Assembly: GCF_900460245.1 (NCBI RefSeq)
Contig: NZ_UHIP01000001.1
Span: 930,001-994,000, forward strand
Direction of reading: 5' to 3'
Length of the DNA stretch: 64,000 nt
Source of the DNA: Vibrio fluvialis
GTDB lineage: Bacteria > Pseudomonadota > Gammaproteobacteria > Enterobacterales > Vibrionaceae
Shown: positions 18,997-47,114 of the stretch, one piece after another
How the letters are laid out: the number at the start of each line of letters is the position of its first letter
Numbering within the stretch: the first letter of the stretch is position 1
Made by a program: the position numbers and the translations under genes
The notes under the pieces: model-generated
Seen by the model: the letters and a program-made list of their open reading frames with translations, nothing else
Databases searched by the model: none
What the model was told of the DNA's origin: nothing

Positions 18997-19103
18997 GGGG
19001 GCCCTGGTCCTCCCGCAACACTAGTTCGTGAATCTGGTCAGGTCCGGAAGGAAGCAGCCACAGCGAATGACGTGTGTGCCGGGATGTGGCTGGGGCTTCC
19101 ACC
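18997..19103 (+). ncRNA. ffs: Signal recognition particle 4.5S RNA
   Basis: The universally conserved SRP apical loop GTCAGGTCCGGAAGGAAGCA is present at 19037-19056, with the returning strand GTGTGCCGGGATG downstream. The 5' end GGGGGCCC pairs with GGGGCTTCC near the 3' end using G-U pairs. The RNA binds Ffh to target nascent membrane proteins. The transposon begins five bases beyond its 3' end, so the mature RNA is left intact while its native terminator is displaced. ffs is one of the recognised attachment sites of I-F3 Tn7-like elements. Confidence 0.97.
19040..19059 (+). other. Attachment protospacer in ffs for the element's own guide RNA
   Basis: The sequence AGGTCCGGAAGGAAGCAGCC matches the last spacer of the CRISPR array (34143-34162, AGATCAGGAAGTAAGCAACC) at 16 of 20 positions. 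Mismatches are at 3, 6, 12 and 18; positions 6, 12 and 18 are the bases flipped out in type I crRNA-DNA hybrids. The dinucleotide on the 5' side is TC. Exactly 49 bp (19060-19108) separate the end of the match from the first transposon base, the distance known for I-F3 integration. Confidence 0.88.
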
Positions 19104-19175
19104 CATCTTGTCGCTGAAACCATTAAGCGTCCCAAAAAAACCATAAAATGTCCCAATAAAACCCATAAAGTGTCC
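19104..19175 (+). mobile_element. tnsA-proximal end of the Tn7-like element, with target duplication and three TnsB sites
   Basis: The element starts with TGTCGCTGAA at 19109; the 5 bp before it, CATCT (19104-19108), would be the target duplication. Three TnsB-type repeats follow in direct orientation: ACCATTAAGCGTCCC, ACCATAAAATGTCCC and ACCCATAAAGTGTCC. TGT plus seven bases plus ACCATAAA is the layout of known I-F3 ends. No matching inverted end was found elsewhere in the window, so the full length is unknown. Confidence 0.88.
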
Positions 19176-19220: not shown

Positions 19221-19844
19221 ATGTACGTTCGCAATCTTCGAAAACCTTCAGCAAACAAAAACGTTTATAAGTTTGTTAGTTTAAAAAATGGCTGCACCAT
19301 CATGTGCGAAAGCTCATTGGAATATGATTGTTGCTACTATTTAGAATATTCGGATGATGTTGTTCGTTACCAGTCTCAGCCGAAAGGTTACCGTTTTCCT
19401 TATCGAGGTAAACAACATCCATACACCCCTGATTTTTTAGTCCATAAGAAAGATGGAACGTCTTATCTCCTCGAAGTAAAACCACTATCAAAGACATTTA
19501 GCTCCGAATTCCAAGATATGTTTCACCAAAAACAAATCATGGCAAGTGAATTGGGGGTACCACTATTACTCGTGACAGACCGCCAAATTCGGAACGATGT
19601 GCACCTTAATAATTTAAAACTCGTACATCGTTATAGCGGTTTTATTGAAAATTCTAGCCATTTGGAAAGTGTTTGGTCAGCCGTTAGTCAATCGTCATCG
19701 ATCTGTATTAAGGCGTTACCAGAAATACTGAACTTAACTATTGGTGAAGTCTTTGCGTCAGTGCTACGTCTTATTGGTTTAGGAAAAGCCAAGACAAAAC
19801 TGGACGTTTTACTGGATGAAAACTCTTTAATTTCGGTGGCTTAA
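19221..19844 (+). CDS. tnsA: Tn7-like transposition endonuclease TnsA
   Basis: The 207-residue protein has the TnsA endonuclease core: Glu in CESSLEYD (residue 34), Asp71 in TPDFLV and the Glu85-x-Lys87 of LEVKPL. TnsA cuts the 5' ends of the donor element so that transposition is cut-and-paste. A C-terminal domain that contacts TnsC follows. AGGACAGG precedes the ATG. It begins 112 bp inside the element and is followed one base later by tnsB. Confidence 0.95.
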   Translation: MYVRNLRKPSANKNVYKFVSLKNGCTIMCESSLEYDCCYYLEYSDDVVRYQSQPKGYRFPYRGKQHPYTPDFLVHKKDGTSYLLEVKPLSKTFSSEFQDMFHQKQIMASELGVPLLLVTDRQIRNDVHLNNLKLVHRYSGFIENSSHLESVWSAVSQSSSICIKALPEILNLTIGEVFASVLRLIGLGKAKTKLDVLLDENSLISVA

Positions 19845-19845
19845 T

Positions 19846-21753
19846 ATGTCTTTTGGGCCATTTGAAGATGAGTTCGGTTCAATAACAAATGACGTACAGC
19901 AACAATATGATGCAAGCCCTGAAGCTAAGCTATCTCGCCTGAAGTATTCACCTCTTGAAAGCTCCAAGGTTATTGAGCGAGATCTATCTTCTTTTCCTGA
20001 AGAGCAGAAACTAAAAGCGCTGGAGCGTTACAAATTAATCTCTTTGATCGCTAAGGAAATAAATGGTGGTTGGACACCTAAAAATCTTATCCCCTTGATA
20101 GATAAGCATATAGAAAAACTTTCTATACCGAAGCCAAGTGATCGTACAGTAAAGCGCTGGTATAAAGCTTTTTGTGAAAGCGATGGTGATATTAAGAGTT
20201 TGGTTGATAGTCATCACTTAAAGGGTAACCGGCAGCCCAGAATTGAAGACGATGAACCGCTTTTTATAGAGGCTGTTGAACGTTTTTTAGATGCTGTTCG
20301 TCCTTCTTACTCTAAGGCTTATCAGGTTTACTGTGACCGAATTGAAATTGAAAATAGCAGTATCGTTTCAGGTGAGATAGCGAAAGTCAGCTATGAAGCT
20401 TTCAAGAAACGGATCAAAAAACTCCCTCCATATACCATCGCTCTCAAGCGTCATGGTAAATATTACGCCGACAAACTGTTTAACTACTATGAAGCAGTCA
20501 AGATGCCTACGCGTATACTGGAAAGGGTAGAGATTGACCATACTCCTCTAGATTTAATCTTACTTGATGATGAGTTGCTTGTGCCGTTGGGGAGAGCCTA
20601 TTTAACTTTATTAGTTGATGTGTTTAGTGGTTGTATAATTGGATTTCATCTCGGCTTCAAAGCACCAAGTTATACTGCGGTTTCAAAGGCAATTATCCAT
20701 TCAGTTAAATCAAAGGAATACGTTAATGAATTGCCAATTGGATTGTCGAACCAATGGATTTGTCATGGAAAAATAGAAAATCTTGTTGTTGATAACGGTG
20801 CTGAGTTTTGGTCGAAAAGTTTAGACCAAGCATGTATTGAGGCTGGTATCAACATCATCTATAACAAAGTTCGTAAGCCTTGGTTAAAGCCCTTTGTAGA
20901 GAGAAAATTTGGTGAACTAATTCAAGGTATAGTGGGATGGATTCCTGGCAGAACATTTTCCAATGTTCTTGAGAAAGAAGATTATGACCCTCAAAAAGAT
21001 GCTGTGATGCGTTTTAGTGTTTTCGTTGAAGAGTTACATCGCTGGATTATTGATGTGCATAACGCTTCAGCGGATAGTCGACATACGCGGATACCTAATT
21101 ATCATTGGAAAAAGAGTGAAGAAGTTATGCCACCTCCTGCTTTGACTGAGCGTGACGAGATACAATTCCGTGTAATTATGGGTGTGGTTCATAAAGGGGC
21201 ATTAACCAGTAAAGGGATAAAATTTAAGCACTTAATGTACGACAATGTGGCGTTAGAACACTATCGTAAACAGTATCCGCAATCCAAAGATAGCAGGATA
21301 AAAACGATCAAGATTGACCCTGATGACTTATCTCGTATCTTTGTGTTTCTTGAAGAAAGAGAAGGTTATATAGAAGTCCCTTGTAAGTGTGATCCGCTTG
21401 GTTACACCAAAAAACTTAGCCTTTGTGAGCATTTAAGAACGGTAAAAGTACATCGTGATTTTATAAAAGGGCAAGTTGATTCATTATCACTAGCCAAAGC
21501 ACGTCAGGCCTTGCATGAGAGAATCAAGCAGGAACATGAAAACTTACGTCAGATGTCGTTACCTCAGCGTGCTAAAAAGGCTAAAAACGGTAAGAAAATG
21601 GCTGAACTAGCTGGCGTTAGCAGCGATAGCCCTAAATCCATAACAACCGATTATCCGATAGAAGACATCATACAACCACACGAATCTACACCTGTCGATG
21701 ATCTCCAATCACTTTGGAATAAGCGCAGGGCATTAAGGAAGTCGAGCAAATGA
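19846..21753 (+). CDS. tnsB: Tn7-like DDE transposase TnsB
   Basis: The 635-residue transposase joins the 3' ends of the element to the target. The DDE triad is visible at Asp231 (VEIDHTPLD), Asp316 (VVDNGAEFW) and Glu352 (KPFVERKFGEL), in an RNase H fold typical of TnsB/TniA/MuA. N-terminal helix-turn-helix modules bind the ACCATAAA repeats at the ends. The C-terminal tail contacts TnsC. The stop overlaps the tnsC start by four bases. Confidence 0.95.
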   Translation: MSFGPFEDEFGSITNDVQQQYDASPEAKLSRLKYSPLESSKVIERDLSSFPEEQKLKALERYKLISLIAKEINGGWTPKNLIPLIDKHIEKLSIPKPSDRTVKRWYKAFCESDGDIKSLVDSHHLKGNRQPRIEDDEPLFIEAVERFLDAVRPSYSKAYQVYCDRIEIENSSIVSGEIAKVSYEAFKKRIKKLPPYTIALKRHGKYYADKLFNYYEAVKMPTRILERVEIDHTPLDLILLDDELLVPLGRAYLTLLVDVFSGCIIGFHLGFKAPSYTAVSKAIIHSVKSKEYVNELPIGLSNQWICHGKIENLVVDNGAEFWSKSLDQACIEAGINIIYNKVRKPWLKPFVERKFGELIQGIVGWIPGRTFSNVLEKEDYDPQKDAVMRFSVFVEELHRWIIDVHNASADSRHTRIPNYHWKKSEEVMPPPALTERDEIQFRVIMGVVHKGALTSKGIKFKHLMYDNVALEHYRKQYPQSKDSRIKTIKIDPDDLSRIFVFLEEREGYIEVPCKCDPLGYTKKLSLCEHLRTVKVHRDFIKGQVDSLSLAKARQALHERIKQEHENLRQMSLPQRAKKAKNGKKMAELAGVSSDSPKSITTDYPIEDIIQPHESTPVDDLQSLWNKRRALRKSSK

Positions 21754-22736
21754 CATTGCTTCAACCAACGAATAATGACGTCGATACATTACTAGCTGAT
21801 TTCCATCAGTCATTTGTCGTTTATCCTGATGTTGAAAAGGTTTTTGAAGGTTTAGATTGGATTGTTCGTCGCAGCCAGTTCGGTAAATTTGCGCCTTCTA
21901 TGCTCATTACAGGCGGGACAGGAGCGGGTAAGACTTCAGTGGTTGAAACCTATTTGAACAACCATTTTTCCGCTTCAGAGGTGTTAGTCACAAGAGTCAG
22001 GCCAAGTTTTGTTGAAACATTAGTTTGGGCAATTGAAAAGCTGAATGTTCCTTACAACAGTCGGTCGAAACGCTCTGAGATTGGTCTACAAGATTATTTC
22101 ATTAGTAGCGTTAAAAAATCTAAACTTAAGCTGTTGGTTATAGAAGAAGCTCAAGAACTGTTTGAGTGTGCATCTCCCAAAGAGAGGCAAAAAATACGCG
22201 ACCGACTAAAGATGATCAGTGATGAATGCCGGTTACCTATCGTCTTTATTGGTATTCCTACCGCCAAACTTATCTTGGAGGACTCACAATGGGACAGACG
22301 AATTATGGTGAAGCGAGACTTGCCATATATCCGAATAACGAACGAAGAGTCTTTAGATATCTATATTGCCTTGCTTGAGGGGCTTGAAAAGACCTTATCT
22401 ATTTCAGTCGTTCCGGAACTGTCTGATATGGACATGGCTATGCGTTTATTAGCTGCCAGTAAAGGGATGATCGGTTTAATCAAAGAACTTGTTGGTTATG
22501 CGCTTGAACTGGCTTTACTCGAAGGTAAACGTCAGATTACTCAAAACGAGTTTATTCAGGCATTTAAATCGATCTTTGGCCCCGATATTAGCAACCCATT
22601 TGAGATTGAGCTCGATAAACTACTAATCTCGCAGATTATTGAGTATGAAGGCTATATTTTGGATTCAGATAGTGGGGATATCAAATTTACTCATCAGATA
22701 TTTGAAGATATACCACTAACAGAATTACTACGTTAA
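21750..22736 (+). CDS. tnsC: Tn7-like AAA+ transposition regulator TnsC
   Basis: The 328-residue AAA+ ATPase has Walker A GGTGAGKTS (about residues 55-63) and Walker B KLLVIEEAQELF. TnsC forms a filament or ring on target DNA that links the TniQ-Cascade complex to TnsAB and gives target immunity. The gene overlaps tnsB upstream and, by four bases, the convergent xre gene downstream. Confidence 0.95.
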   Translation: MTLLQPTNNDVDTLLADFHQSFVVYPDVEKVFEGLDWIVRRSQFGKFAPSMLITGGTGAGKTSVVETYLNNHFSASEVLVTRVRPSFVETLVWAIEKLNVPYNSRSKRSEIGLQDYFISSVKKSKLKLLVIEEAQELFECASPKERQKIRDRLKMISDECRLPIVFIGIPTAKLILEDSQWDRRIMVKRDLPYIRITNEESLDIYIALLEGLEKTLSISVVPELSDMDMAMRLLAASKGMIGLIKELVGYALELALLEGKRQITQNEFIQAFKSIFGPDISNPFEIELDKLLISQIIEYEGYILDSDSGDIKFTHQIFEDIPLTELLR

Positions 22737-24126: not shown

Positions 24127-27100
24127 TCATACTTTTGTTACTTGCCGAACCCTTATAACAACATATTGATGCTGATTAATATCTATATCATCAGGCAAAA
24201 ACCTTGCCATCAAATCGGCTATACGTTCACTGTACATCTGCTCACTCTTATAATCATCATATATTCTCCAATATAAAGAGCTTTGCCTGTACAGGTTGAG
24301 CATCGGAACAAAGTCACGATTCTGGTAAAAAGAATGCCAAAGAATTCGATGAGCACTATTAAATAGACCTTGAACTCTCTGTGAAAAACCGTAGATATAG
24401 CATGCCATGACTATACGAAGCTCTTCTTTAGTCAATAGCTCCCCTTCATCTTGATCAATTAAAAGCCGTCCTTTCCTTACAACTGCTCTATACTGGTTGT
24501 ATTCGTCTCCAACACTTCTAATGACTCTGTTCAGCCAGCCAAGCTTTGCTTGATTTGAAACTTCTAAGTCAGCTAGTTTTAAGGCCGTATTATTTGCAGA
24601 AGTAATAGAATTATTATTTCTTGCGTTTAGTTCCAGCTCTTTGAGACCAGATATGTCGTCCACGCCGCTTAGTTCAATCTTAATTAGCCTTGCATTCCTA
24701 TGCTTGGGTTCTAAATCTAGAACTTTATCCACCATAAGATTCGCGTTATCAGAATCGCCCTCATTCTGATAGTACCATGCTAAATTCAAGTACAGCGAAA
24801 CCCTTTGCGCACGATTGAGTTCATCATCTTCTTCCAACGCCAGTTGTAGTTTTTCTCCAGCTCGCTCATCGAGATCAACTAATCGTAACGATTTGCCTTC
24901 CCAGTAGTTGAAATGTGCAAAAGACCCTACTTTGTCAGATTCTTTAGCAATCGCATGGAGCTCTTCACAAAAACTGATTACTTCTTGATGCTTCTTATAT
25001 TTGGATAGTAGATGACAATAAGATTTACAAATTCTAACCGCTGCATTAATGTCCCTTTCTACATCGAGCTCGACAGCACAACGAAGCAAGTGCATTAGAA
25101 TCACTCTTGTACTACCTACGGTTTTCGAGCTTTTCTTCAAAAGCTGTTTAGCAAAAGTACAAAGCTTTAGTCGTCCAACTCTCCATTGATTCCCTAAATG
25201 AATATCCGCTAACCGTTTTACTACTTCATAAACTTCAATTGTTGTTAGCTGGGCATACACATACTGTCTAACGAGAATTGGCAAGGTAATAATCTTGTCT
25301 TCGCCGTTGATCCCACCTTTGCTAAAATAACCACTATCAATAGGCAGTGTTTCAATTAGCTCTAAGCCATTGAGTTCTTTTACGTGAGAAGACTTAAATA
25401 CAGAGCGTTCACTAGCTTTTTTTAAATTTGTGAAACAATCGCCATACTCTAATATGGATAACACCGTAAGAAGCTCTAAACTTAACTTTCCATGAGGATC
25501 ATCGCTGTTTTTGAGGTTTTCGATTCTAGTTACTAATTCGGGTGGAAACCTATTGTCTGTATCCTGCTTGTATGACTCTGGGGTGTAGTGAGACTCATAA
25601 ACTGAATCAATAGAAAAAAGTTTTAGTTCATCAATATATTTATCTAAAAGGCTTGGTACTCCGTGAGAAAGCTTCACTAAGGGCTCCATTACCCTTTCAT
25701 TCGATGTATCCACTCTTTTTTCATGATGCTTAACATAACTTCGAATGTCATATTCTTCTAATCTAGGCACAGTTAAACAACATAACGTAACTATCGGTTG
25801 TTTCGAGCAAACAAGTAATTTAGTTGAAGGGCTATAATCTCTAAACAATGATGCAATAGGCTCAAGGACATCAGCATAACCTTTAGCTCCATTTACGAGC
25901 GAATCAACATTATCAATACACAAGATTGAACGTGAGTTAGGTAAAGAGCTAACAAGTGTCTGAAGTCCGAAACCGTAAATACTCTCAACTCTTGTAAGTA
26001 GCTCCTTCTTGTCCTTTACCCCTTCCAGATCAAGATAGAACGTAGGCACGCCATGATATGGAGAATTGATATCGTATACAAATGATTGGATAAACTCTTC
26101 TTTACCCAAGCCCCAGTCCGCACACACATTTACAACATGGTTAGATTCTAATAATTCAGCTAATCGCTCTTTCTCCACCCCCCGAATATGGAGATGTGCT
26201 TGCTGAAACGGCATTCGCCATATAGGTAGTTCTACACTAACCTGCTCTAAAATTTGCTCTTCTTTCTGTGAGTCCTGTTTTCCTTCTACATTATCACCCT
26301 CTTTAATCTCAATATCATTCTGAGGGACTGTCTCCGATAGCTCCTTTAAAAAAGCGTGACAGTCAATTCCACCATAAGCTCTAAATCTATTTCTTTGTAT
26401 CGCTGGATGCATTGCATCAATAAGAGCTGAGTATTTACTTGTAATAAGCTCACTATCACTTTCAAAAAACGCCCATACAATATCGATATTTGCGCTAGTG
26501 TCGTTCATTAGCTCACAAAGAACTTGAGTAAAAACGTCATTCCAACCACTATACCCTATGACTAGTAGTGTTTTATTCCTTAGAAGATGAGCTAAGGAAT
26601 TTTTTAGCTTAGGGCGGTCGATTGTTAACTGAGCTGGGGTATGAAGAGTATCTGTAACAACCCAGTGTCCATGAAGGTGTACAATATGATGACCTGTAGG
26701 CCTATACTGTTCCAAACTGCTATCGCCGTGCAGTACAGTTTGGCTCGGTTTAAAATCCAACTTTGACAAAGCAACTGCCAACAACGGATCAAAGTTAGGC
26801 GTTAGAACTGTGTTATAAAAACGAGGATTACTAACCAAAAGCCTAGCTAAAGCCGATGTAGCCTCTGGAATACACCAGCTATCTAGCTCTTCCTGAAGCC
26901 CCAATAATTGGTTGGTATCATTCAAATCGATTGAAGATGTATCTCTATTAAAAGCCTTAAGCACAGCCCTTCGAATAATACCATTGACAGTATTTGGGCT
27001 CGTATAATCAGCTAAGAACGTAAAAGCTTGCTGATAGCGCTCCCCATCACGAGAGTGGCCATGTAAATCATTAAACTTATCAAGTAGTTTTTTCTCCTTT

Positions 27101-27258
27101 AGAACACTTTCTACAAGTTCCATTACACCATTGACATTTGGCACTCCGTCACCAGTAGATGAGTCATACGACAATGGAGAACCAAACAAAACAACTATGT
27201 CATTGTCACTATTTTCGATGACGCTCGCTAATGCATCTTTTTCAACAACTCTTAACAT
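24127..27258 (-). CDS. SIR2-STAND (Avs-like) defence protein, transposon cargo
   Basis: A 1043-residue protein in three parts. Residues 1-305 are a SIR2-like NADase domain (LFGSPLSYDSSTGDGVP; LTPNFDPLLA at 152-161; HLHGHW at 194-199; VIGYSGWND). Residues about 345-640 are a STAND/NTPase module whose P-loop reads CADWGLGKEEF (379-389), a degenerate Walker A. The rest is helical TPR-like repeats (YLNLAWYYQNEGDSDNANLM). This layout matches SIR2-bearing antiviral STAND proteins, which deplete NAD on sensing phage proteins. It stands alone between tnsC and tniQ, the usual cargo position, and is AT-rich. The sensed trigger is unknown. Confidence 0.82.
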   Translation of the reverse strand: MLRVVEKDALASVIENSDNDIVVLFGSPLSYDSSTGDGVPNVNGVMELVESVLKEKKLLDKFNDLHGHSRDGERYQQAFTFLADYTSPNTVNGIIRRAVLKAFNRDTSSIDLNDTNQLLGLQEELDSWCIPEATSALARLLVSNPRFYNTVLTPNFDPLLAVALSKLDFKPSQTVLHGDSSLEQYRPTGHHIVHLHGHWVVTDTLHTPAQLTIDRPKLKNSLAHLLRNKTLLVIGYSGWNDVFTQVLCELMNDTSANIDIVWAFFESDSELITSKYSALIDAMHPAIQRNRFRAYGGIDCHAFLKELSETVPQNDIEIKEGDNVEGKQDSQKEEQILEQVSVELPIWRMPFQQAHLHIRGVEKERLAELLESNHVVNVCADWGLGKEEFIQSFVYDINSPYHGVPTFYLDLEGVKDKKELLTRVESIYGFGLQTLVSSLPNSRSILCIDNVDSLVNGAKGYADVLEPIASLFRDYSPSTKLLVCSKQPIVTLCCLTVPRLEEYDIRSYVKHHEKRVDTSNERVMEPLVKLSHGVPSLLDKYIDELKLFSIDSVYESHYTPESYKQDTDNRFPPELVTRIENLKNSDDPHGKLSLELLTVLSILEYGDCFTNLKKASERSVFKSSHVKELNGLELIETLPIDSGYFSKGGINGEDKIITLPILVRQYVYAQLTTIEVYEVVKRLADIHLGNQWRVGRLKLCTFAKQLLKKSSKTVGSTRVILMHLLRCAVELDVERDINAAVRICKSYCHLLSKYKKHQEVISFCEELHAIAKESDKVGSFAHFNYWEGKSLRLVDLDERAGEKLQLALEEDDELNRAQRVSLYLNLAWYYQNEGDSDNANLMVDKVLDLEPKHRNARLIKIELSGVDDISGLKELELNARNNNSITSANNTALKLADLEVSNQAKLGWLNRVIRSVGDEYNQYRAVVRKGRLLIDQDEGELLTKEELRIVMACYIYGFSQRVQGLFNSAHRILWHSFYQNRDFVPMLNLYRQSSLYWRIYDDYKSEQMYSERIADLMARFLPDDIDINQHQYVVIRVRQVTKV

Positions 27259-27668: not shown

Positions 27669-27680
27669 TTTTGGTTGCCC

Positions 27681-28892
27681 ATGGATACGGAAATTGAAGT
27701 TTACCCTGATGAATCTCTCGAAAGCTTCTTACTACGCTTAAGTAAGTATCAAGGCTATGAGCGATTCTCTCATTTTGCTGAAGATATCTGGCAGAGTACG
27801 ATACAACAACATCAAGCTATTTCTGGCGCTTTCCCTTTCGAACTCAGTCGAATCAACATTTATAAGGCTCAAACAACGAGCCAAATGCGGGTTCGAGTAC
27901 TTATAGATTTAGAAAGGCGATTGAAACTTAGTGATTTTGGTATTTTGCGATTAGCGCTTGCTCATTCCAATGCGAATTTCTCTTCTGATTACAAAGCTGT
28001 GCATCGCTATGGGGTCGATTATCCCCAAGCCTTTCTAAGAAAACGTTTCATACCTGTTTGCCCCAAATGCTTAGATGAAGCACCTTATATTCGTCAACTG
28101 TGGCATTTTGTTCCCTACCAAGCTTGTCATAAACACCATGGTCAACTCGTTCAGCGATGCCCTGAATGCGGTAAGCTGTTTGATTACCAATCATCAGAAT
28201 TGATAGAACATTGTGAATGCGGACTATCTTTGACGAATATTGAACCAGAGCAGGAAAGTGACTCTACGTTTATTGTTGCGCGATGGTTAGCGGGCGAAAA
28301 GTACATAGAACCTGGTTTAATGAGTCAGCAACTGACTCTATCGAGTCGGTATGGTTTTCTGCTTTGGTATATAAACCGATATAGTGAACTTGATGAGATT
28401 AGTTTCGACAACTTTGTTGAGTGTTGTAAAACTTGGCCGCAAAAACTTGATGCTGATTTAGACTCAATTGTGCTAAAGGCTGACATAGTGCGAACCCGGA
28501 CTTGGAGTAAAACCTACTTTGGTGAAGTATTTGGTCCTTTACTTAAAGAGTGCAGAAATCTTCCGAGTCGTGAGCTAAGCAAGAATCCGGTTTTGCAGAG
28601 CATAGTTCAGTATTTCAGTAGGTTGGTCGCTAATTATCCCAGAGACAGGACAGCTAACATCGGTGATGTGTTAGTAAGTCCGTTAGAAGCGTCTACACTA
28701 GTTTCATGCAGCACGGATGAAATATATCGCCTTTACCAGTTTGGAGAGCTTAAAGCGCAGCTCACGCCCAAATTACACACTAAAATTGAAAACCATCATT
28801 CAGTTTTCACTCTTCGTAGCATTATCGAGCTTAAGTTTTCCAGAATGTGCAGTGAAACCGATGGCCTAAACCATTATTTGCCAGAGTGGTAA
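27681..28892 (+). CDS. tniQ: TniQ target-selection protein of the I-F3 transposon
   Basis: The 403-residue protein starts MDTEIEVYPDESLESFLLRL, the standard TniQ N-terminus. Two zinc-binding groups are visible (CPKCLDE with ACHKHHGQ, and CPECGKLF with CECGLSL). A helical C-terminal half with a helix-turn-helix near residues 325-345 follows. TniQ dimers bind Cascade at Cas6 and recruit TnsC to the RNA-specified site. ATG 27681 is preferred over the upstream TTG 27675. cas8 starts four bases after the stop. Confidence 0.93.
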   Translation: MDTEIEVYPDESLESFLLRLSKYQGYERFSHFAEDIWQSTIQQHQAISGAFPFELSRINIYKAQTTSQMRVRVLIDLERRLKLSDFGILRLALAHSNANFSSDYKAVHRYGVDYPQAFLRKRFIPVCPKCLDEAPYIRQLWHFVPYQACHKHHGQLVQRCPECGKLFDYQSSELIEHCECGLSLTNIEPEQESDSTFIVARWLAGEKYIEPGLMSQQLTLSSRYGFLLWYINRYSELDEISFDNFVECCKTWPQKLDADLDSIVLKADIVRTRTWSKTYFGEVFGPLLKECRNLPSRELSKNPVLQSIVQYFSRLVANYPRDRTANIGDVLVSPLEASTLVSCSTDEIYRLYQFGELKAQLTPKLHTKIENHHSVFTLRSIIELKFSRMCSETDGLNHYLPEW

Positions 28893-29633
28893 GCTATGTC
28901 GACTTTGCAAGATTTAATCGATATTGAAGACTCAAAGCTCCGATTTATAGCAATCAAAAAGGCATTCATGCCTTATACACAACCAGTCGAAATTGATGGG
29001 AATGAAAAACAGGCATTAATTGTGCTACTCAATTTGTCATTGAGTAAACCAGAAGCTCAAGACTGGCTCGATCTATCTCGGGCTATGGGCTATTTCGTCA
29101 ATTCAGATAATCTAACAACGGCTAAGCACGAAATTAAGTGGTTTCATACTCACAACCTTAAGTTTCCTGATTGCAGAGTTTCTGAGCAACGAATTATAGC
29201 GATGCCACTGTATAGCGAGATACCAACACTCACTAGTCAGTCATTAAACAGAGTTTATGGCTGGGCGCACAATTCCGCCGTTTATAAACATACTATTTGG
29301 TTATTAAATGAGTTCCGGTGGCGTGGAAGAGTGGAGAATCTGCTTAACCTCATTCGTGTTGGTGAGCATTTTTGGCTGGAGCTTTTAGCTGATATAGGAT
29401 TAAAACCCGAAGTACAACTGCAGATTAAAGAACTAATTGAACGTCAGCTACCGTCTGCGTATTTCCCTGACGAAGTGAATCGCTATAGTAAGCAGCTCCG
29501 TTTCCCTTGGAAGGGTGAGTACTTATCAGTAACCCCTGTGGTTAGCCATGCCATACAGCAGCAATGACCTGCTCCCCTTAATCTAGTCCAGTCTACACTT
29601 AGTAATGTTCATCCAACCAAGGAGATGATGAAC

Positions 29634-29897
29634 ATGAAAAAGCGATTCAATGAACAACAAATCATTGCCATTTTAAAGGAAGCGGAAGCAGGTATCCCCG
29701 CCAGAGAGCTTTGCCGCAAGCATGGGATATCGGATGCGACGTTTTACACATGGCGCAAAAAATACTCAGGACTGGATGTCTCTGAAGCCCGTCGCCTTAA
29801 GGCACTGGAAGACGAGAACGCTCGGCTCAAAAAGCTGCTGGCTGAGACACTGCTGGATGCAGAAGCACTTAAAATCGCTCTTAGCCAAAAGTACTGA
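29634..29897 (+). CDS. IS3-family transposase OrfA
   Basis: The 87-residue protein has a helix-turn-helix (RFNEQQIIAILKEAEAGIPA, then HGISDATFYTWRKKYSG) and a C-terminal leucine-zipper region (LKALEDENARLKKLLAETLL). OrfA binds the IS ends and regulates OrfAB. I start at ATG 29634, nine bases after AAGGAG; ATGs at 29625 and 29628 are too close. The frame ends in CAA AAG TAC TGA, where a -1 slip to CCA AAA would enter orfB. Confidence 0.88.
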   Translation: MKKRFNEQQIIAILKEAEAGIPARELCRKHGISDATFYTWRKKYSGLDVSEARRLKALEDENARLKKLLAETLLDAEALKIALSQKY

Positions 29898-30766
29898 CCG
29901 TCGAGGACAAGCGCAAGGCTGTTAAAGTCATTCAGAAAAGCACCCAGCTTTCAGAACGCAGAGCCTGTCTACTCGTCGGTATTCAACGCGCGTCACTGCG
30001 ATATCAACCTCAAGCTAATCGCGAGGATGATAAGCTTCAGGCTCGTATAAAAGAGCTGGCATTGGAACGACGTCGATTCGGTTATCGTCGGATCCATCGC
30101 CTTCTGAGGCGAGAAGGTTTTGATGTTAACCATAAGCGAGTTTATCGCTTGTACTGCGAATTAGGCTTAACGGTCAGCAAACGGAGACGTAGAAAATCAC
30201 AGTGTGTTGAGCGAGAGCCTCTCTTGCTTCCTTCAGTACCAAATCACACTTGGTCGATGGACTTTGTGATGGATGCGCTCAGTAACGGCAGACGGATTAA
30301 ATGCCTGACGATTGTGGATGATTACACAAAGGAGTGCCTAGATATTCCTGTTGCTACGGGGATCTCGGGAGATGAAGTCGTGATCACGCTGGAGTCTATC
30401 GCTGCGTTTCGCGGTTATCCAGCATCGATACGAACGGATCAAGGCCCAGAATTTACAGGGAAAGCGCTCGACCAATGGGCTTATCAGCATGGTGTGATTT
30501 TAAAAGTAATCCAGGCAGGAAAACCGACACAAAATGCTTATATTGAAAGTTTTAATGGTAAGTTCAGAGATGAATGTTTAAACGAGCACTGGTTTAGGGA
30601 TTTGAGTCATGCTCGTGACCTAATCAGCCTCTGGCGAATGGATTACAATGAAAATCGCCCCCACTCAGCTCTAGGTTACTTAACTCCTTCTGAGTTTGCA
30701 GCGACAACAAGAACGGCACGAAACAGTGGTAATTTAACAAGCATTACTAATGAAGTTTTGGATTAG
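29888..30766 (+). CDS. IS3-family transposase OrfB catalytic part
   Basis: This frame is open from the frameshift region near 29888 to 30766. It encodes a charged linker (TVEDKRKAVKVIQKSTQLSE), an HTH_21-type segment (RRRFGYRRIHRLLRREGF) and an rve integrase core with the DDE residues in SMDFVMDA, RTDQGPEF and NAYIESFNGKFRDE. It is normally made as an OrfAB fusion by -1 frameshifting; an internal ATG exists at 30062. The catalytic core is intact, so the IS is probably still active. Confidence 0.88.
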   Translation, partial: KVLTVEDKRKAVKVIQKSTQLSERRACLLVGIQRASLRYQPQANREDDKLQARIKELALERRRFGYRRIHRLLRREGFDVNHKRVYRLYCELGLTVSKRRRRKSQCVEREPLLLPSVPNHTWSMDFVMDALSNGRRIKCLTIVDDYTKECLDIPVATGISGDEVVITLESIAAFRGYPASIRTDQGPEFTGKALDQWAYQHGVILKVIQAGKPTQNAYIESFNGKFRDECLNEHWFRDLSHARDLISLWRMDYNENRPHSALGYLTPSEFAATTRTARNSGNLTSITNEVLD

Positions 30767-32211
30767 TTCTCGGGGGCAGGTCAGCAACTCTCTGTCTTGT
30801 CTCGTCAACATTCATGTTCACTTCACTTTAAGACTATGAATTTCCCGCATTCAGCTAGTATCGGGAACTTATGCGGTGCGCTGGGTGGGGACATGGACGT
30901 GCTCAACTATCCGATTGATGTAACAGCGAATCGACATCAAACACTCAGTGCAAGCCGCAGTAGAACCAACCGCTACTTTGATGATTTTCAATTAACCTCA
31001 AAAAGAACCTGTAATGTATTGGCTCATCTGACAGGTTTTGAACAACCGCAAACCCGCAAAGCGCAAATACATGTTCGCCAATATCAACTGAAAATCATAC
31101 GTAAACAAATCGCCCGGTGGTTACTACCGCTCATCGAACTACGTGACAGTTCAGTCACAGAACAAATAAGCATTGTTGATGGGCCAGATGATGAACTGGT
31201 GAAGCGGTTCTTATCAATCAATGAGTTCGATTTTTTAGATCTTACAACGAGCTTAAATCAGCGTTTGCACTTTGCTTTACAGAATAATCGCTTTGCTTCT
31301 CGTTTTGCCTACCATCCAAAACTGATGCGAGTGTTAAAGACGGAGCTCATATGGGTGCTAACTCAGCTAAGTCGTCCTGAACCTGCGTGTTCTGCCACTT
31401 CCGATAGTACCGTGCAGTACCTTTACCTTCCATCGATGAGGGTATTTGATGCCGCAGCGTTGAGTTGTCCATATTTATCAGGTGCACCGTCATTAACAGC
31501 GGTGTTTGGATTTGTTCATCGCTACCAACGAGAATTAAGAGATCTACTACCTGATAAGGAAGGAAAGTTAAAGTTTAAAGATTTTGCTATTTTTATTCGT
31601 GATGAATCAGTTCAAACCAGCGCAAAACTGACCGAACCCAGTGTAATAGCTAAAGCGCGGAGTATTTCACCAGTTAAGAGAACCACGATCATTCGTGAAG
31701 ACCGTTCTGATTTGGTATTTGATATTGTGATTACAATAGAAAGTGACCAACGTCTCTCTGATTATTTAAACCAGTTAAGAGCCGCATTACCAACTAACTT
31801 TGCCGGTGGTACTTTGTTTCAACCGGAGACTTCTTTAGGGATTGATTGGTTAAGAGTTTTCGTAAGTAAGTCAGATCTGTTCCAAGCGGTGAAAGGTTTA
31901 CCGGGCTATGGTACTTGGCTATCACCATATTCTTTTCAGCCTCAAAATCTGATGGAGCTACAAGAACGTTTGTCTAATGACGGTTCGTTGATTCCTGTAG
32001 CAAATGGCTTTCATTTTCTTGAGCTACCCCAGGAACGAGAGGGAGCATTGACGAACTTGCATTGTTATGCGGAAAACAACATTGCGTTAGCGAAACGGGT
32101 TAGTCCAATCGAAGTAAGAATTGCCGGAAGAGATCACTTTTTTGAACAGGTGTTTTGGTCGTTGGAAGTGACAGAGCAGACTATCCTTATAAAAAAAGGA
32201 TCTAACCGCTT

Positions 32212-33252
32212 ATGGAACTCTGCAGTCAGTTAAATTATCTTCGCTCGTTATCACCAGGCAAAGCATATTTTTATTATCTTGATGAGGATAATAAGATGCG
32301 GCCACTCCAGATAGACCGGACTCACTTACGAGCACCCAAAAGTGGCTATTCAGAAGCTTTCTCGGGTAATTTCAAATCCAAAAATATTGCCCCTCAAGAT
32401 CTTTCCTATTCAAACCCACAATTCATTGAAGAGTGTTACGTGCCACCCGGAGTAGATGATATCTATTGTGCTTTCTCGTTAAGAGTTCGAGCTAATTCGT
32501 TATCACCAGAAGTATGTGTTGATAATGAGGTCAGAGATACTCTCAGTGACCTTGCTATGGTTTATAAGGAATTGGGTGGATATCAGGAACTGGCAAGGCG
32601 TTACGCTAAAAATATTTTGATGGCGACGTGGGTTTGGGAGCGTAATAGAGATTGCCGGAACATTGAGGTACAAGTCATTACAGAAGCTCAAAAATGGAAA
32701 ATTGCTGATGTTAGATTTCTAGACTGGTATGGAGATTGGGATATTGCTTCTCAAACAGCCTTAGATGAGCTTACCGATTATCTAACTAAAGCTTTATCAG
32801 ATCGTTCGGGCTACTTTAACATGGATATTAAAGCCAAATTGTCTGTTGGTTGGGGTGATGAGGTATACCCAAGCCAAGAATTCTTAGATGTGAAGGAAGC
32901 AGGTAAACCAACTAAACAGTTGGCCAAGGTAACTGTCAATGGCGAAGAGTCAGCAGCCTTTCATTCGCAGAAAGTTGGAGCCGCGATTCAACGAATCGAT
33001 GATTGGTGGGATGAAAATGCCGATAAACCGCTACGAGTTAACGAATATGGTGCAGACAAAGAATATGTAATCGCAAGGCGGCATAGTTCACTGAAACGTG
33101 ACTTTTACTCATTGGTTGTAAAAACTGAAAGCTACGTTGAATCGATGCGAGAAACGAATCTGATTCCAGATGACGTGCACTTTATCATGGCAGTATTAGC
33201 TAAAGGCGGTGTGTTCAGTGGTGCAAGCAAGAAAGGCAAGAAGGATGAGTAA
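32212..33252 (+). CDS. cas7f: Cascade backbone protein Cas7f (Csy3)
   Basis: The 346-residue protein matches Csy3 in length and sequence character (LNYLRSLSPGKAYFYYLDED; IEVQVITEAQKWKIADVRFL). Several copies coat the crRNA spacer, one per 6 nt. The ATG lies 22 bases inside the end of cas8f and the stop shares one base with the cas6f start, so translation is coupled. It is intact, but downstream of the IS in cas8f and possibly affected by polarity. Confidence 0.9.
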   Translation: MELCSQLNYLRSLSPGKAYFYYLDEDNKMRPLQIDRTHLRAPKSGYSEAFSGNFKSKNIAPQDLSYSNPQFIEECYVPPGVDDIYCAFSLRVRANSLSPEVCVDNEVRDTLSDLAMVYKELGGYQELARRYAKNILMATWVWERNRDCRNIEVQVITEAQKWKIADVRFLDWYGDWDIASQTALDELTDYLTKALSDRSGYFNMDIKAKLSVGWGDEVYPSQEFLDVKEAGKPTKQLAKVTVNGEESAAFHSQKVGAAIQRIDDWWDENADKPLRVNEYGADKEYVIARRHSSLKRDFYSLVVKTESYVESMRETNLIPDDVHFIMAVLAKGGVFSGASKKGKKDE

Positions 33253-33994: not shown

Positions 33995-34190
33995 GTGTTC
34001 CGCCGAGTAGGCGGCTAAGAATTTGGAGCTTTTTTGCCGCAAAACTGGCAGCTTGTGTTCCGCCGAGTAGGCGGCTAAGAATAAAAGAGATAGTCAGAAC
34101 CAGAATCACTATCAGTGTTCCGCCGAGTAGGCGGCCAAGAATAGATCAGGAAGTAAGCAACCCATATCCGCTGGGCTAGCGGTAAATAAG
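33995..34190 (+). CRISPR. Type I-F3 CRISPR array ending in a 20-nt ffs-targeting spacer and an atypical repeat
   Basis: There are three 28-bp repeats at 33995, 34055 and 34115 (GTGTTCCGCCGAGTAGGCGG plus CTAAGAAT). Repeats 1 and 2 are identical; repeat 3 has CCAAGAAT. The first two spacers are 32 nt. The third is AGATCAGGAAGTAAGCAACC, 20 nt (34143-34162). A fourth, atypical repeat occupies 34163-34190: it aligns without gaps at 15 of 28 positions and keeps the Cas6 hairpin as CCGCT-GGGCT-AGCGG against CCGCC-GAGTA-GGCGG, with one compensatory C-G to T-A change. The last spacer matches ffs; the targets of the first two are unknown. Confidence 0.92.
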
Positions 34191-34481
34191 CCAACTTCAA
34201 TCGTCTTACTTATATTGTTGTAGCATAGTGAACATGCTCACTAGGTTAGAGTTATTTTCAATACGCCCTGTAATACATTAAATACTAAATTAGATATGCA
34301 TGTAATTCAGAGATCTCCAAAAGCGACCTGCTCGATACGTGGCAGCTTGCGTGTCTCCGGGTTAACTTCACTTCTATTTACACATCTCATAGAATGCCCA
34401 ACTTATTGCTCAACAAATCTGTAAACTTTCTTAAATCACAATTATATGATGTGCTAAGTTTGCTAATGTAATCATTATCTT
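34191..34481. other. Intergenic region after the CRISPR array
   Basis: About 290 bp of AT-rich sequence without a supported gene. This is where a distal transposon end might be expected, but no ACCATAAA-type TnsB repeats are visible in either orientation. The string ACACATCT at 34380-34387 imitates an end plus target duplication but lacks the repeats. Confidence 0.5.
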
Positions 34482-45243: not shown

Positions 45244-46329
45244 ATGAATTTTGCTTGTAGCTATAATCATCACTTTTCCACAGGAAAACTCTATCCTTCA
45301 GACGAAGTTAAACTTATCGAACTTGGTTTCAAGGCTTATCGTAGTTTATTTGTTGAAAATACTCCACCAGAGAAAGTTAAACACACTCCAATATCACTAC
45401 ATATATCAAGATCACCAATAACCGAAAATGAGATATACCAAGATCGTTTCATCAATGAAAAACTAATTGATACACAATATGATAATAGAATTATCAGCCT
45501 TGGTTTTCATTTATGTGGTGATAGAAATGATAATATAGGAAAGCTTGGGTTTTCCTCGCACTATAATCATGATCATGGCAGTGAAGACAATGCGATTCGT
45601 TTTTTGACTAAAGTGCGTCAAGTGACAAAAAAACCGGTATGGTTGGAAAATGCGAATTTTTACTCCTCTTCAGTAAATGAAATCATAACGAATTGGAAGA
45701 GCTTTAATCGTGTAGTTAAAGAGTCCGGATCTGGTGCTATCATCGACCTATCTCATTTAATTATTGACTGTAAGAACAATGATATAAATCCAACTTCCAT
45801 GATTGGCTTCATTGATTGGGACTCCGTTATAGAAATCCACTTATCTGGGATTATCGAGGGTAAAGATGGAGCTTTGCATGATGGTCACGGCACTCAAGTC
45901 CATCCTTCTGTATGGGAATTACTCCGACAGATCTTAAAGTTAAAGTTAGTGGATAAAAATGTCTTTATCAATATAGAGCACAGCGATGATGTTTGGGCGG
46001 AAAAAACAGATCTTTACAAAAGTGATTTCGATATACTTAAAAAACTACTAAGTGAACCACTGAGTGAAATCAGCAAAGCAGAATATGCTCGAGTGTATGC
46101 CGAATCTTATCTAAAAAAGTTATTAAACCAAGAGGTAGAGAATATCAAAGATATATCCGATTTCTTTAATATTACACCCTCAGAGCTTTTGAATGAGTGG
46201 ATGGATTACGTCGTTAGTGTAGATAAGAGAGTTGCACTCTCAATTGACGACATGGATTCACTAATTGAGAAAAATTCAATACACTTTATTCAATCATTTA
46301 CAGATTTCGTAGATTATAAACAACAATGA
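45244..46329 (+). CDS. MNIO-superfamily (DUF692-like) protein of the methanobactin-like operon
   Basis: The 361-residue protein has a TIM-barrel N-terminal part (1-270) with the metal-ligand pattern of multinuclear non-heme iron oxidases: SLHIS, FHLCGDR, WLENANFY, IIDLSHLI, EIHLSGIIEGKDGALHDGHG and NIEHSD. An 85-residue helical C-terminal extension follows, possibly a peptide-binding domain. It is the first of two MNIO paralogues in the operon. An extra gene called mbnX occurs in some published methanobactin operons and may be its counterpart, which I could not check. Its ATG is 14 bases after the hairpin, and its stop overlaps the next start by four bases. Confidence 0.75.
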   Translation: MNFACSYNHHFSTGKLYPSDEVKLIELGFKAYRSLFVENTPPEKVKHTPISLHISRSPITENEIYQDRFINEKLIDTQYDNRIISLGFHLCGDRNDNIGKLGFSSHYNHDHGSEDNAIRFLTKVRQVTKKPVWLENANFYSSSVNEIITNWKSFNRVVKESGSGAIIDLSHLIIDCKNNDINPTSMIGFIDWDSVIEIHLSGIIEGKDGALHDGHGTQVHPSVWELLRQILKLKLVDKNVFINIEHSDDVWAEKTDLYKSDFDILKKLLSEPLSEISKAEYARVYAESYLKKLLNQEVENIKDISDFFNITPSELLNEWMDYVVSVDKRVALSIDDMDSLIEKNSIHFIQSFTDFVDYKQQ

Positions 46330-47114
46330 AAGTAGGCATTAACTGGTCAGGACAAAGAGAACTGACTTGTATAAAAGAATTATTCGAGAATAGAGATATA
46401 GAGTTTGTTGAGTTATTAATAGATAACTTTTTAACGACAGATGTTAACTCAATCAAAGAGATCCTTAAAGGGCGTCCCTGTGCGTTTCATATCATGAACT
46501 CTCAGTTTCTTCACAGAGATGAACTTGAGTTAAAAAACATGGCACAAATAATAAATACCTTAATAGCAGACCTAAAACCTATATATATATCTGATCATAT
46601 CGGTAAGTTCTATCATAACGAGCAAGCACTGCCCCAAATGCTAGAGGTTAACTACGTAAAAGATACTGAGTGGGTCCTAGAAAAACTAACATACTGGTCT
46701 AGTCTTTTACATGGTCAATTATTATTAGAAAACTATCCATCGATAATACCGCAATCCACAACGCAGGTGAGCTTTTTCAAAGAAATCCTGTCTAAAACTC
46801 AATGTGGTCTTCTTTTTGATCTTTCTAACGCATTTATAGCTGAAAAAAATACAGGTCAAAAAAAAGAGGCTTGGCATGAGTTAACCAAAGAATGCCAACA
46901 CTTTCATATCGCAGGTTTTGAAGATGGGCCGGAGGGTGAGTTTTTAGTAGATACACATAATCAATGTATTAACGAGTTAGTACTCGACTACCTTGTGCAA
47001 TTCGCGCGAGAGCATGACATCCAGACTATCTCAGTTGAAAGAGATGACAACTTCAACGCTCGTGAATGGATGAGAGACGTCGATAATGTTAGAGGTTGTC
47101 AAATTCATGGATAA
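46326..47114 (+). CDS. mbnB: Methanobactin biosynthesis iron oxygenase MbnB-like (DUF692)
   Basis: The 262-residue DUF692/MNIO protein shows FVELLIDNF, AFHIMNSQF, YISDHIGKFY, LLLENYPS, LLFDLSNAF, FHIAGFEDGPEGEFLVDTHN and ISVERD. These provide the His, Asp, Glu and Asn residues that hold two or three iron ions in MbnB. With MbnC it would convert the core Cys of the precursor to an oxazolone and thioamide using O2. Length and position (directly before mbnC) fit MbnB better than the longer paralogue upstream. Confidence 0.85.
   Translation: MKVGINWSGQRELTCIKELFENRDIEFVELLIDNFLTTDVNSIKEILKGRPCAFHIMNSQFLHRDELELKNMAQIINTLIADLKPIYISDHIGKFYHNEQALPQMLEVNYVKDTEWVLEKLTYWSSLLHGQLLLENYPSIIPQSTTQVSFFKEILSKTQCGLLFDLSNAFIAEKNTGQKKEAWHELTKECQHFHIAGFEDGPEGEFLVDTHNQCINELVLDYLVQFAREHDIQTISVERDDNFNAREWMRDVDNVRGCQIHG

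What the first reader, a model, noticed from the sequence alone, without database searches (positions are those of the whole stretch)
34143..34190. A 20-nt homing guide with a diverged repeat, matching the neighbouring ffs gene at 6-nt periodicity
Seen: the last spacer (AGATCAGGAAGTAAGCAACC) is 20 nt, not 32. The repeat behind it is diverged (15 of 28 positions kept) but retains the Cas6 hairpin through a compensatory C-G to T-A change. It matches ffs 19040-19059 at 16 of 20 bases, with mismatches at 3, 6, 12 and 18; type I crRNA leaves every sixth base unpaired. The end of this 20-nt match is exactly 49 bp from the transposon end, the known I-F3 integration distance. A 32-nt reading would give 37 bp, and its last 12 positions would all mismatch. 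Known: I-F3 elements use atypical terminal guides for their att site. Inference: this element homes with a short guide and so with a Cascade carrying two fewer Cas7 subunits.
Basis: partly seen in the sequence, partly recalled or inferred. Interest (0 to 1): 0.95.

Follow-up and report, generated by a model that had tools for sequence, protein, structure and literature searches.

The report
Short-guide homing in a CRISPR transposon
A CRISPR-guided transposon in Vibrio carries a 20-letter guide for its home site instead of the usual 32, dozens of related transposons carry guides just as short and sit about 15 base pairs closer to the guide's start than relatives with full-length guides, and the likely reason is that the short guide is built into a smaller targeting complex.

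Summary
The terminal spacer (34143-34162) is 20 nt, matches ffs 19040-19059 at 16/20 (mismatches 3, 6, 12, 18) beside a TC PAM, and ends 49 bp from the transposon end. It is not a quirk of one array. Of 90 distinct Cas6 loci, 74 have an ffs-like stretch behind cas6; of 72 measured guides, 53 are 18-20 nt, 19 are 31-34 nt, none between. In 50 short guides, positions 6, 12 and 18 mismatch their own ffs in 149 of 150 cells, and the match falls to a mean of 25% beyond position 20. Elements with short guides sit 68-75 bp from the PAM (49 junctions), those with long guides 79-84 bp (14). Two contrasts inside the short-guide clade separate guide length from lineage: a plasmid insertion assigned to a 32-nt guide lies at 79 bp, and at a second att site (3' end of an AraC-family gene) a 22-nt guide gives 69 bp and a 32-nt guide 83 bp. 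A shortened Cascade with about four Cas7 is the best explanation; the Cas7 count is inferred. This copy's cas8/5 is split by an IS3-family insertion, so it is probably inactive now. Priority in print could not be fully checked.

The parts
19002..19098 (+). ffs gene (4.5S / bacterial small SRP RNA), the attachment site
   Evidence: Rfam RF00169, 76 bits
19038..19039 (+). PAM, TC
   Evidence: sequence; TC in 50 of 50 short-guide and 11 of 15 long-guide ffs sites, CC in the other 4
19040..19059 (+). 20-bp protospacer in ffs
   Evidence: 16/20 to the guide, mismatches 3, 6, 12, 18
19060..19108 (+). 49-bp spacing to the transposon end; last 5 bp (CATCT, 19104-19108) are the expected target-site duplication
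   Evidence: sequence; second copy of the duplication not proven
19109..19175 (+). tnsA-proximal transposon end with repeated CCATAAARTGTCC-like boxes (TnsB-type by position)
   Evidence: homology to relatives ends at 19105-19106
19221..19844 (+). tnsA
   Evidence: Pfam PF08722
19846..21753 (+). tnsB
   Evidence: Pfam PF09299 above cut-off, rve below cut-off
21750..22736 (+). tnsC
   Evidence: Pfam TniB/AAA
27675..28892 (+). tniQ
   Evidence: Pfam PF06527
28896..29567 (+). first part of the cas8/5 fusion gene, interrupted
   Evidence: open frame ends at the IS; no Pfam hit, assigned by position
29564..30783 (+). IS3-family insertion inside cas8/5 (transposase frames 29625-29897 and 30062-30766)
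   Evidence: 97.3% to an IS3-family element on a Vibrio plasmid; Pfam
30797..32233 (+). second part of cas8/5 (Csy2/Cas5 region)
   Evidence: Pfam PF09614
32212..33252 (+). cas7 (csy3)
   Evidence: Pfam PF09615
33252..33863 (+). cas6 (csy4)
   Evidence: Pfam PF09618
33995..34142 (+). typical array: three 28-nt repeats and two 32-nt spacers (34023-34054, 34083-34114)
   Evidence: first spacer is 32/32 to a Vibrio fluvialis plasmid gene with a CC PAM
34143..34162 (+). 20-nt homing guide against ffs
34163..34190 (+). atypical terminal repeat; hairpin CCGCT-GGGCT-AGCGG at 34168-34182
   Evidence: 15/28 kept, compensatory stem change
34380..34387 (+). possible far transposon end: ACA followed by CATCT
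   Evidence: matches the expected duplication, but no clear end boxes seen there; unproven

Best explanation
The last spacer of this type I-F3b CRISPR-associated transposon is a 20-nt guide matching the ffs gene beside which the element sits, and it likely works as a homing crRNA in a shortened Cascade, predicted to hold four Cas7 subunits instead of six, that would place the transposase about 69 bp from the PAM instead of about 81. Shown from sequence: the short spacer, its position-specific match, the atypical hairpin whose stem follows the typical repeat's stem, the conservation of 18-20 nt in one clade, and the shift of insertion sites with guide length. Inferred: that Cas6 cleaves the terminal repeat to give a roughly 48-nt crRNA (8 + 20 + 20), that fewer Cas7 assemble on it, and that TniQ, TnsC and TnsB then stack at their usual spacing from the end of the shorter R-loop. 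Also inferred: a reason to keep it short is that a resident type I-F1 effector should not turn a 20-bp R-loop into Cas2/3 cleavage of the essential ffs locus. The same array holds 32-nt spacers, one of which matches a plasmid, so one set of Cas proteins would build two sizes of complex. In this copy the machine is probably broken by the IS3-family insertion in cas8/5.
For: Guide lengths are bimodal: 53 of 72 measured ffs guides 18-20 nt, 19 of 72 31-34 nt, none between (4 of the 72 lengths were set by eye and are good to about 1 nt). PAM-to-end distances: 49 short-guide junctions 68 (34), 69 (7), 70 (1), 71 (3), 72 (3), 75 (1), median 68; 14 long-guide junctions 79 (4), 80 (1), 81 (1), 83 (5), 84 (3), median 83; no overlap. 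Only pairs with ffs and cas6 on one contig and strand: 44 short (43 with a clean end, 68-75) and 9 long (79-84). Within the short clade: Vibrio sp. THAF190c plasmid element, 32-nt guide 23/32 to a dcm gene piece at the element's edge, PAM CC, end at 79 bp, duplication AAAAG at a matching far end, while the same left-end sequence lies 68-69 bp from the PAM at ffs in relatives. At an AraC-family att site (Pfam), a 22-nt guide goes with an end at 69 bp and a 32-nt guide with an end at 83 bp, PAM CC in both. Match to own ffs in 50 short guides: 98-100% at 13 of the 17 other positions of 1-20 (84, 82, 68 and 96% at 3, 4, 13, 15), 0, 0 and 2% at 6, 12, 18, mean 25% over 21-32; 15 long guides match 69% over 21-32. 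Hairpin: the 5 short elements with a CCGCC typical stem all have CCGCT- or TCGCT-/AGCGG at the end; of 44 with CTGCC/GGCAG, 37 have CTGCT/AGCAG, 4 a one-sided G-U variant and 3 a 4-nt-loop form of it (68 loci). Type I-F1 Cascade assembles on 20-nt spacers, L = 6N - 4, and even a 26-nt spacer gives no interference (PMC7296934, section 7 read). VchCAST inserts at 82 bp = 32 + 21 + 14 + 15 (PMC13345079, passages).
Against: No crRNA or complex was observed. In VpCAST mismatches at 25-29 abolish transposition and at the last two nucleotides cut it 56-fold (PMC12774636, passages); a 20-nt guide has no positions 25-32. A review says spacers shortened in 6-nt steps 'showed little or no effect' in VchCAST (PMC10188703, passages); my recollection of the original is little or no transposition. 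PseCAST's TnsC ring bridges TniQ and Cas8 across the complex (PMC13228271, passages), a geometry that a four-Cas7 complex would change. The commonest length by repeat frame is 18, which does not fit 6N - 4 unless two repeat-side bases act as guide. The observed shift is 11 (plasmid), 14 (AraC-family site) or 15 bp (ffs medians), not exactly 12. Short ffs guides form one clade, so the ffs contrast alone is confounded with lineage. The THAF190c assignment rests on a 23/32 match with the last three bases mismatched. One short-clade junction lies at 75 bp (L005).
Confidence: 0.85

Rival explanations
1. The shorter PAM-to-end distance is set by clade-specific TniQ, TnsC or TnsB footprints, and the guide length is incidental.
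For: All 52 short-guide rows in the Cas6 tree lie in one supported set of 59 (midpoint root), so length and lineage go together at ffs.
Against: Inside that set, insertions assigned to 32-nt guides lie at 79 bp (plasmid dcm) and 83 bp (AraC-family site), while short guides give 68-75 bp and, at the same AraC-family site, 69 bp.
Confidence: 0.07
2. The mature homing crRNA has a 32-nt spacer that runs into the diverged repeat; the terminal hairpin is not a Cas6 site.
For: The terminal repeat keeps only 15/28 positions, and no RNA data exist.
Against: The hairpin stem follows the typical repeat's stem; positions 21-32 match ffs at a mean of 25% in 50 guides against 69% in 15 long guides; a 32-nt spacer would end 37 bp from this element's end. 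A terminator-like stem with a T run lies in the stretch scanned behind the terminal hairpin in 49 of 68 loci, leaving little room for a later processing site there.
Confidence: 0.03
3. The short guide is loaded into a normal six-Cas7 Cascade, with part of the 3' handle lying in the backbone and only 20 bp paired.
For: Cas7 counts are not measured, and an 18-nt frame does not fit 6N - 4.
Against: TniQ would then sit where it does on a 32-nt guide and insertion should be near 81 bp, not 68-72.
Confidence: 0.04
4. The homing guide acts with another system in the cell (the resident I-F1 or the second I-F3-type effector) rather than with the element's own Cascade.
For: This genome holds an I-F1 locus with cas1, cas2/3, csy1 and csy3 and a second I-F3-type cas6, and the element's own cas8/5 is split.
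Against: An uninterrupted cas8/5 frame of 684-709 aa was found in 25 of 26 short-guide loci with enough upstream DNA, none in L003, and the terminal stem follows the element's own repeat.
Confidence: 0.02
5. The match is chance or a vestige without function.
For: This copy carries an IS insertion in cas8/5.
Against: About 0.05 such matches expected in the window; 53 loci carry such a guide, with mismatches concentrated at positions 6, 12 and 18.
Confidence: 0.01

Closest known systems
Type I-F3b CRISPR-associated transposons at ffs, e.g. Tn6900 of Aeromonas salmonicida S44 (the name Tn6900 for this plasmid element is recalled)
   Same: tnsABC, tniQ, cas8/5-cas7-cas6, ffs guide behind an atypical repeat, same first base of the guide; TC PAM at most ffs sites
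   Different: the S44 plasmid element's own ffs guide is 32 nt (L107) and its plasmid insertion is 80 bp from the PAM; the short-guide clade has 18-20 nt and 68-75 bp
Type V-K CAST homing guides (truncated repeat-spacer units)
   Same: a shortened, separate homing guide for the att site (PMC11406308, passages)
   Different: single-protein Cas12k effector; no Cas7 backbone whose size could follow the guide
Laboratory type I Cascades with shortened spacers (Aggregatibacter I-F1, PMC7296934)
   Same: a 20-nt spacer assembles a smaller complex and a shorter R-loop
   Different: engineered and inactive in interference; here the short guide is natural, conserved and tied to real insertions
VchCAST / VpCAST / PseCAST structures
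   Same: the same order of parts; about 50 bp beyond the spacer accounts for the insertion site (PMC13345079, passages)
   Different: studied with 32-nt guides; VpCAST needs matches at the PAM-distal positions, which a 20-nt guide lacks

Membership tests
Type I-F3b CAST | tnsA, tnsB, tnsC, tniQ with cas8/5, cas7, cas6 | tested here: met
   cas8/5 is present in two pieces
Type I-F3b CAST | no cas1, cas2/3 in the element | tested here: met
   none among the larger ORFs scanned between 19221 and 33863; small ORFs not scanned
Type I-F3b CAST | insertion downstream of ffs with TC PAM | tested here: met
   literature value 96.6% TC (PMC12774636, passages)
Type I-F3b CAST | homing guide behind an atypical repeat | tested here: met
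   15/28 positions kept, hairpin kept
Type I-F3b CAST | insertion about 48-50 bp beyond the protospacer end | tested here: met
   49 bp with a 20-nt protospacer; 37 bp with a 32-nt one
Type I-F3b CAST | 32-nt homing spacer as in the S44 plasmid element | tested here: not met
   20 nt here, 18-20 nt in its clade
Type I-F3b CAST | RtbC-type Xre regulator | not tested
   the stretch after tnsC resembles a helix-turn-helix gene on related plasmids; not pursued
Type I-F3b CAST | intact effector in this copy | tested here: not met
   IS3-family insertion in cas8/5
Type I-F3b CAST | target-site duplication at both ends | tested here: inconclusive
   CATCT at 19104-19108 and after ACA at 34383-34387, far end lacks recognisable boxes; AAAAG found at both ends of the THAF190c relative, the far end being the end-like one of three candidates
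Four-Cas7 Cascade | four Cas7 on the homing crRNA | not testable with these tools
   inferred from length and insertion shift
Type V-K CAST | Cas12k effector | tested here: not met
   class 1 cas genes
Type I-F1 adaptive CRISPR | cas1 and cas2/3 with the array | tested here: not met
   not found in the element's scanned ORFs; a separate I-F1 locus is on the second contig

The most novel reading that the evidence does not exclude
A whole clade of transposons has evolved a variable-size Cascade: the same Cas proteins build a six-Cas7 complex on 32-nt guides to reach plasmids and a four-Cas7 complex on 18-22-nt guides to reach the home site, and the short form is kept because its R-loop is too short for the host's own I-F1 system to license Cas2/3 cutting of the essential ffs locus. 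Guide length would then be a second privacy lock beside the atypical repeat, and a natural ruler that sets where the transposon lands.
Probability: 0.45. Interest if true: 0.9.

Novelty: new variant of a known kind. Interest (0 to 1): 0.77.

Why it matters
Present accounts of I-F3 transposition rest on a 32-nt guide, and in VpCAST pairing at the PAM-distal positions is needed. A clade that homes with 18-20 nt would show that licensing can work without those positions, giving a natural handle on which Cas8, TniQ and TnsC contacts are really needed, and a smaller guide format for programmable insertion. It also makes testable why homing guides differ from plasmid-targeting ones: safety from the host's own I-F1 nuclease.

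Tried and rejected
Finding the far end of the window's element: TnsB-type boxes searched on both strands, flanks of three relatives compared with the window plus 15 kb and one of them with the whole genome; the matching flank lies elsewhere (C1:635663), so the end stays unproven. RNA folding of the presumed 48-nt crRNA gave no signal above shuffles (-6.4 kcal/mol, z 0.77). Cas8/5 or Cas7 length as a marker of the short clade: no clear difference. Spacer 2 of the window: one weak plasmid match, 87.5%, E 0.02.

Rows dropped or odd. Of 81 ffs places in hand (80, plus the window), 69 went into; left out were 4 without an element end (L093, L095, L192, L198), 2 second ffs copies (L106, L201), 3 at cut contigs (L105, L157, L182) and 3 duplicates (L190, L194, L200). 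Of the 69, 66 have an array with a stretch of at least 13/20 (L008, L009, L124 do not) and 65 a measured length (L142 does not). One search drops two of these whose end lacks a clean TG: L117 (by the 12-nt spacing rule, read by eye, 68 bp; the script's 71 is not used) and L123 (by that rule 84 bp; the script's 72 is spurious). L142 was misread because an ffs copy lies downstream of its array; by eye it has a short guide, and its junction is at 68 bp. L124 has a long ffs guide seen by eye and 81 bp, not in the counts. L031, L044, L042 and L129 lengths were set by eye and may be 1 nt low. L026, L146 and L148 have a 4-nt loop, so 19 is as good as 20. L128 (broken cas6) was too short for the tree. 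Of the 65 paired junctions, 12 could not be shown to be one element with their array: 11 have cas6 on another contig and one (L073) has it on the other strand (for several genome-collection loci the contigs were equated by number or coordinates). L128 and L132 have cas6 only 256 and 2956 bp from ffs, likely internal deletions. Of the 16 loci without a stretch of 13/20, L008 and L013 end at contig edges, L009 has other DNA there, L007, L145 and L150 carry the AraC-family guide, L124 is told above, and the other 9 were not assigned. The mean of 25% over guide positions 21-32 hides 60, 84 and 60% at 26, 31 and 32, where fixed hairpin bases agree with ffs.

Print search: (74, 75 and 84 list only the first 20 papers) and term finds showed no report of short I-F3 homing guides. 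Section 3.3.2 of the 2024 review (read) mentions none, and the passages seen use 'truncated' for V-K guides. Petassi 2020 and Klompe 2022 are not held, so I cannot say it is unpublished.

Full report
What is there. The window holds a type I-F3b CRISPR-associated transposon next to ffs, the gene for 4.5S RNA (Rfam hit 19002-19098). From the ffs side: transposon end at 19109, tnsA, tnsB, tnsC (19221-22736), cargo including a 1043-aa SIR2-domain protein, tniQ (27675-28892), cas8/5 in two pieces, cas7, cas6 (to 33863), then the array. The array has three typical 28-nt repeats and two 32-nt spacers, then a 20-nt spacer and a diverged repeat. The first 32-nt spacer matches a Vibrio fluvialis plasmid gene at 32/32 with a CC PAM; the second has only a weak plasmid match.

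16/20 match to ffs 19040-19059, mismatches at 3, 6, 12 and 18, TC PAM, 49 bp from protospacer end to transposon end, and no match in positions 21-32. About 0.05 such matches are expected by chance in the window. The terminal hairpin changes one stem pair on both sides (CCGCC/GGCGG to CCGCT/AGCGG). Homology with three relatives stops at 19105-19106.

Comparison with relatives. Cas6 homologues (51 proteins) were found and 27 sequences aligned; the alignment fetched 45 loci from a genome collection and was searched in 227 genomes of the genus (68 with a match) and 394 drawn from the order (21 with a match at E 1e-30). Of 90 distinct loci (29 duplicates set aside), 74 have a stretch of at least 13/20 match to the ffs core downstream of cas6; 72 of these have a measured guide length. 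Lengths fall in two groups: 53 at 18-20 nt, 19 at 31-34 nt. Both groups start at the same base of ffs. The window and its nearest kin (L002, L003, L004, L051) read 20; most Vibrio elements read 18 by the repeat frame, because the hairpin starts 3 rather than 5 nt after the 20 matching bases. The long group includes the Aeromonas salmonicida S44 plasmid element (L107, recalled as Tn6900) and Pseudoalteromonas, Photobacterium and Marinobacter elements.

Match pattern. Each guide was compared with the ffs of its own genome. In 50 short guides positions 6, 12 and 18 mismatch in 149 of 150 cells; other positions within 1-20 mismatch in 4.7%, mostly at 3, 4 and 13; positions 21-32 match at a mean of 25%, though 26, 31 and 32 match at 60-84% because fixed hairpin bases agree. 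In 23 distinct guide-target pairs the mismatch counts at 6, 12 and 18 are 23, 23 and 22. In 15 long guides positions 21-32 match at 69%. The last two bases of the short guide, 19 and 20, match in 100% and 98%, and positions 31 and 32 of the long guides in 93% and 87%. So the short guide's match really ends at about position 20.

Insertion distance. The element end was read 12 nt before the first CATAAG-like box, beginning TGT or TGA. Short guides: 49 junctions, 68 bp from the PAM in 34, 69 in 7, 70 in 1, 71 in 3, 72 in 3, 75 in 1. Long guides: 14 junctions, 79 in 4, 80 and 81 in one each, 83 in 5, 84 in 3. The ranges do not overlap; medians 68 and 83. The rank test gives p = 6.6e-10, but the rows are related, so this is descriptive. 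Restricting to pairs with ffs and cas6 on one contig and strand leaves 44 short (43 of them with a clean end, 68-75 bp) and 9 long (79-84 bp).

Lineage or guide? In a Cas6 tree of 89 of the 90 loci, all 52 short rows sit in one set of 59 (support 100/99, midpoint root); the other 7 rows have cut arrays, other DNA or other guides, or, for L142, a guide the script misread. Lineage and length are therefore confounded at ffs. Two contrasts inside the set separate them. First, Vibrio sp. THAF190c: its element has the short ffs guide but sits in a plasmid, with dcm-annotated pieces on both sides; its 32-nt guide matches the piece at the tnsA side at 23/32 with a CC PAM, the end is 79 bp from the PAM, and the 5-bp duplication AAAAG recurs at an end-like far sequence, one of three candidates. 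The match has mismatches 3, 6, 9, 12, 15, 21 and 30-32, so that this guide placed the element is an inference, though about 0.003 such matches are expected in the 100 kb of strands searched. The same left-end sequence lies 68-69 bp from the PAM at ffs in relatives. Second, a different att site, the 3' end of an AraC-family regulator gene (Pfam): L007 (genome G189) has a 22-nt guide, 17/20 over the first 20, and its element end is 69 bp from the PAM; genome G021 has a 32-nt guide, 26/32, to the same place and its end is 83 bp away. PAM is CC in both. The S44 plasmid element, 32/32, gives 80 bp. The V. penaeicida plasmid element (L145) has a 32-nt AraC-family guide too, but none of its three spacers matched the 50 kb around it at 66% or better, apart from the array itself, so it gives no distance.

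Mechanism. VchCAST inserts about 82 bp from the PAM, accounted for as 32 nt of guide plus 21, 14 and 15 bp for TniQ, TnsC and TnsB (PMC13345079, passages). Replacing 32 by 20 gives 70, within the range that short guides show. In a type I-F1 Cascade the number of Cas7 follows L = 6N - 4, a 20-nt spacer assembles, and even a 26-nt spacer supports no interference (PMC7296934, section 7). The simplest reading is a shortened Cascade with about four Cas7 that carries TniQ nearer the PAM; 12 bp is predicted, 11, 14 and 15 bp are seen in the three contrasts. The Cas7 number, the crRNA ends and the complex are all inferred. The weak points are the reported need for PAM-distal pairing in VpCAST (PMC12774636, passages), the Cas8-TnsC bridge in PseCAST (PMC13228271, passages), and the 18-nt frame.

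Why short? One idea: this genome also holds an I-F1 locus with cas1, cas2/3, csy1, csy3 and a long array. A 32-nt ffs guide taken up by I-F1 could cut an essential gene; a 20-nt one should not license Cas2/3. Known privacy comes from atypical repeats, PAM and mismatch tolerance (PMC11406308, section 22); length would be an extra lock. This is untested, and long-guide elements do without it.

State of this copy. cas8/5 is split by an IS3-family insertion (29564-30783; 97.3% to an element on a Vibrio plasmid). The position next to ffs records a past homing event; present activity is doubtful. An uninterrupted cas8/5 frame of 684-709 aa was found in 25 of 26 short-guide loci with enough upstream DNA.

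Novelty. ffs-inserted Tn7-like I-F elements, atypical repeats and TC PAMs are known (PMC12774636, PMC11406308, PMC6360697, passages). I found no report of short I-F3 homing guides or of the distance shift in the held library, but the key papers, Petassi 2020 and Klompe 2022, could not be read. I file it as a new variant of a known kind.

Noticed in passing
window 29564-30783: IS3-family insertion splits cas8/5; flanking 4 bp GCAA, read by eye, may be its target duplication. The element is probably inactive now.
   Followed up: partly
G000:C2:1474489-1482725 (L218, L250) and G000:C2:268221-268802 (L217): The same genome carries an I-F1 locus with cas1, cas2/3 and a long array, and a second I-F3-type cas6 whose last guide, by eye, is about 31 nt.
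   Followed up: partly
ffs guides of 50 short-guide elements, positions 6, 12, 18: The sixth positions are almost never the ffs base (149 of 150 mismatched) and are mostly A; unconstrained drift would leave about a quarter matching. Shared descent may explain it, or a base preference at flipped positions.
   Followed up: partly
L238/L248 (G021), L007/L232 (G189), L145: A further att site used by this clade: the 3' end of an AraC-family regulator gene, with guides of 32, 22 and 32 nt.
   Followed up: yes
L142 (G210) and L104/L106 (G233): Extra ffs copies: one lies just beyond the array of an element, another about 5 kb from the ffs next to an element. Possibly duplicated att sites.
   Followed up: no
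L005: Photobacterium aquae element with a short ffs guide behind an odd repeat (CTACT/AGTAG stem) and a 75-bp distance, the outlier of the short group.
   Followed up: no
window 24127-27258: Cargo gene for a 1043-aa SIR2-domain protein on the minus strand, possibly a defence gene.
   Followed up: no
window 45244-47114: Two adjacent genes with MbnB/TglH/ChrH domains, a RiPP-type modification locus well beyond the array.
   Followed up: no
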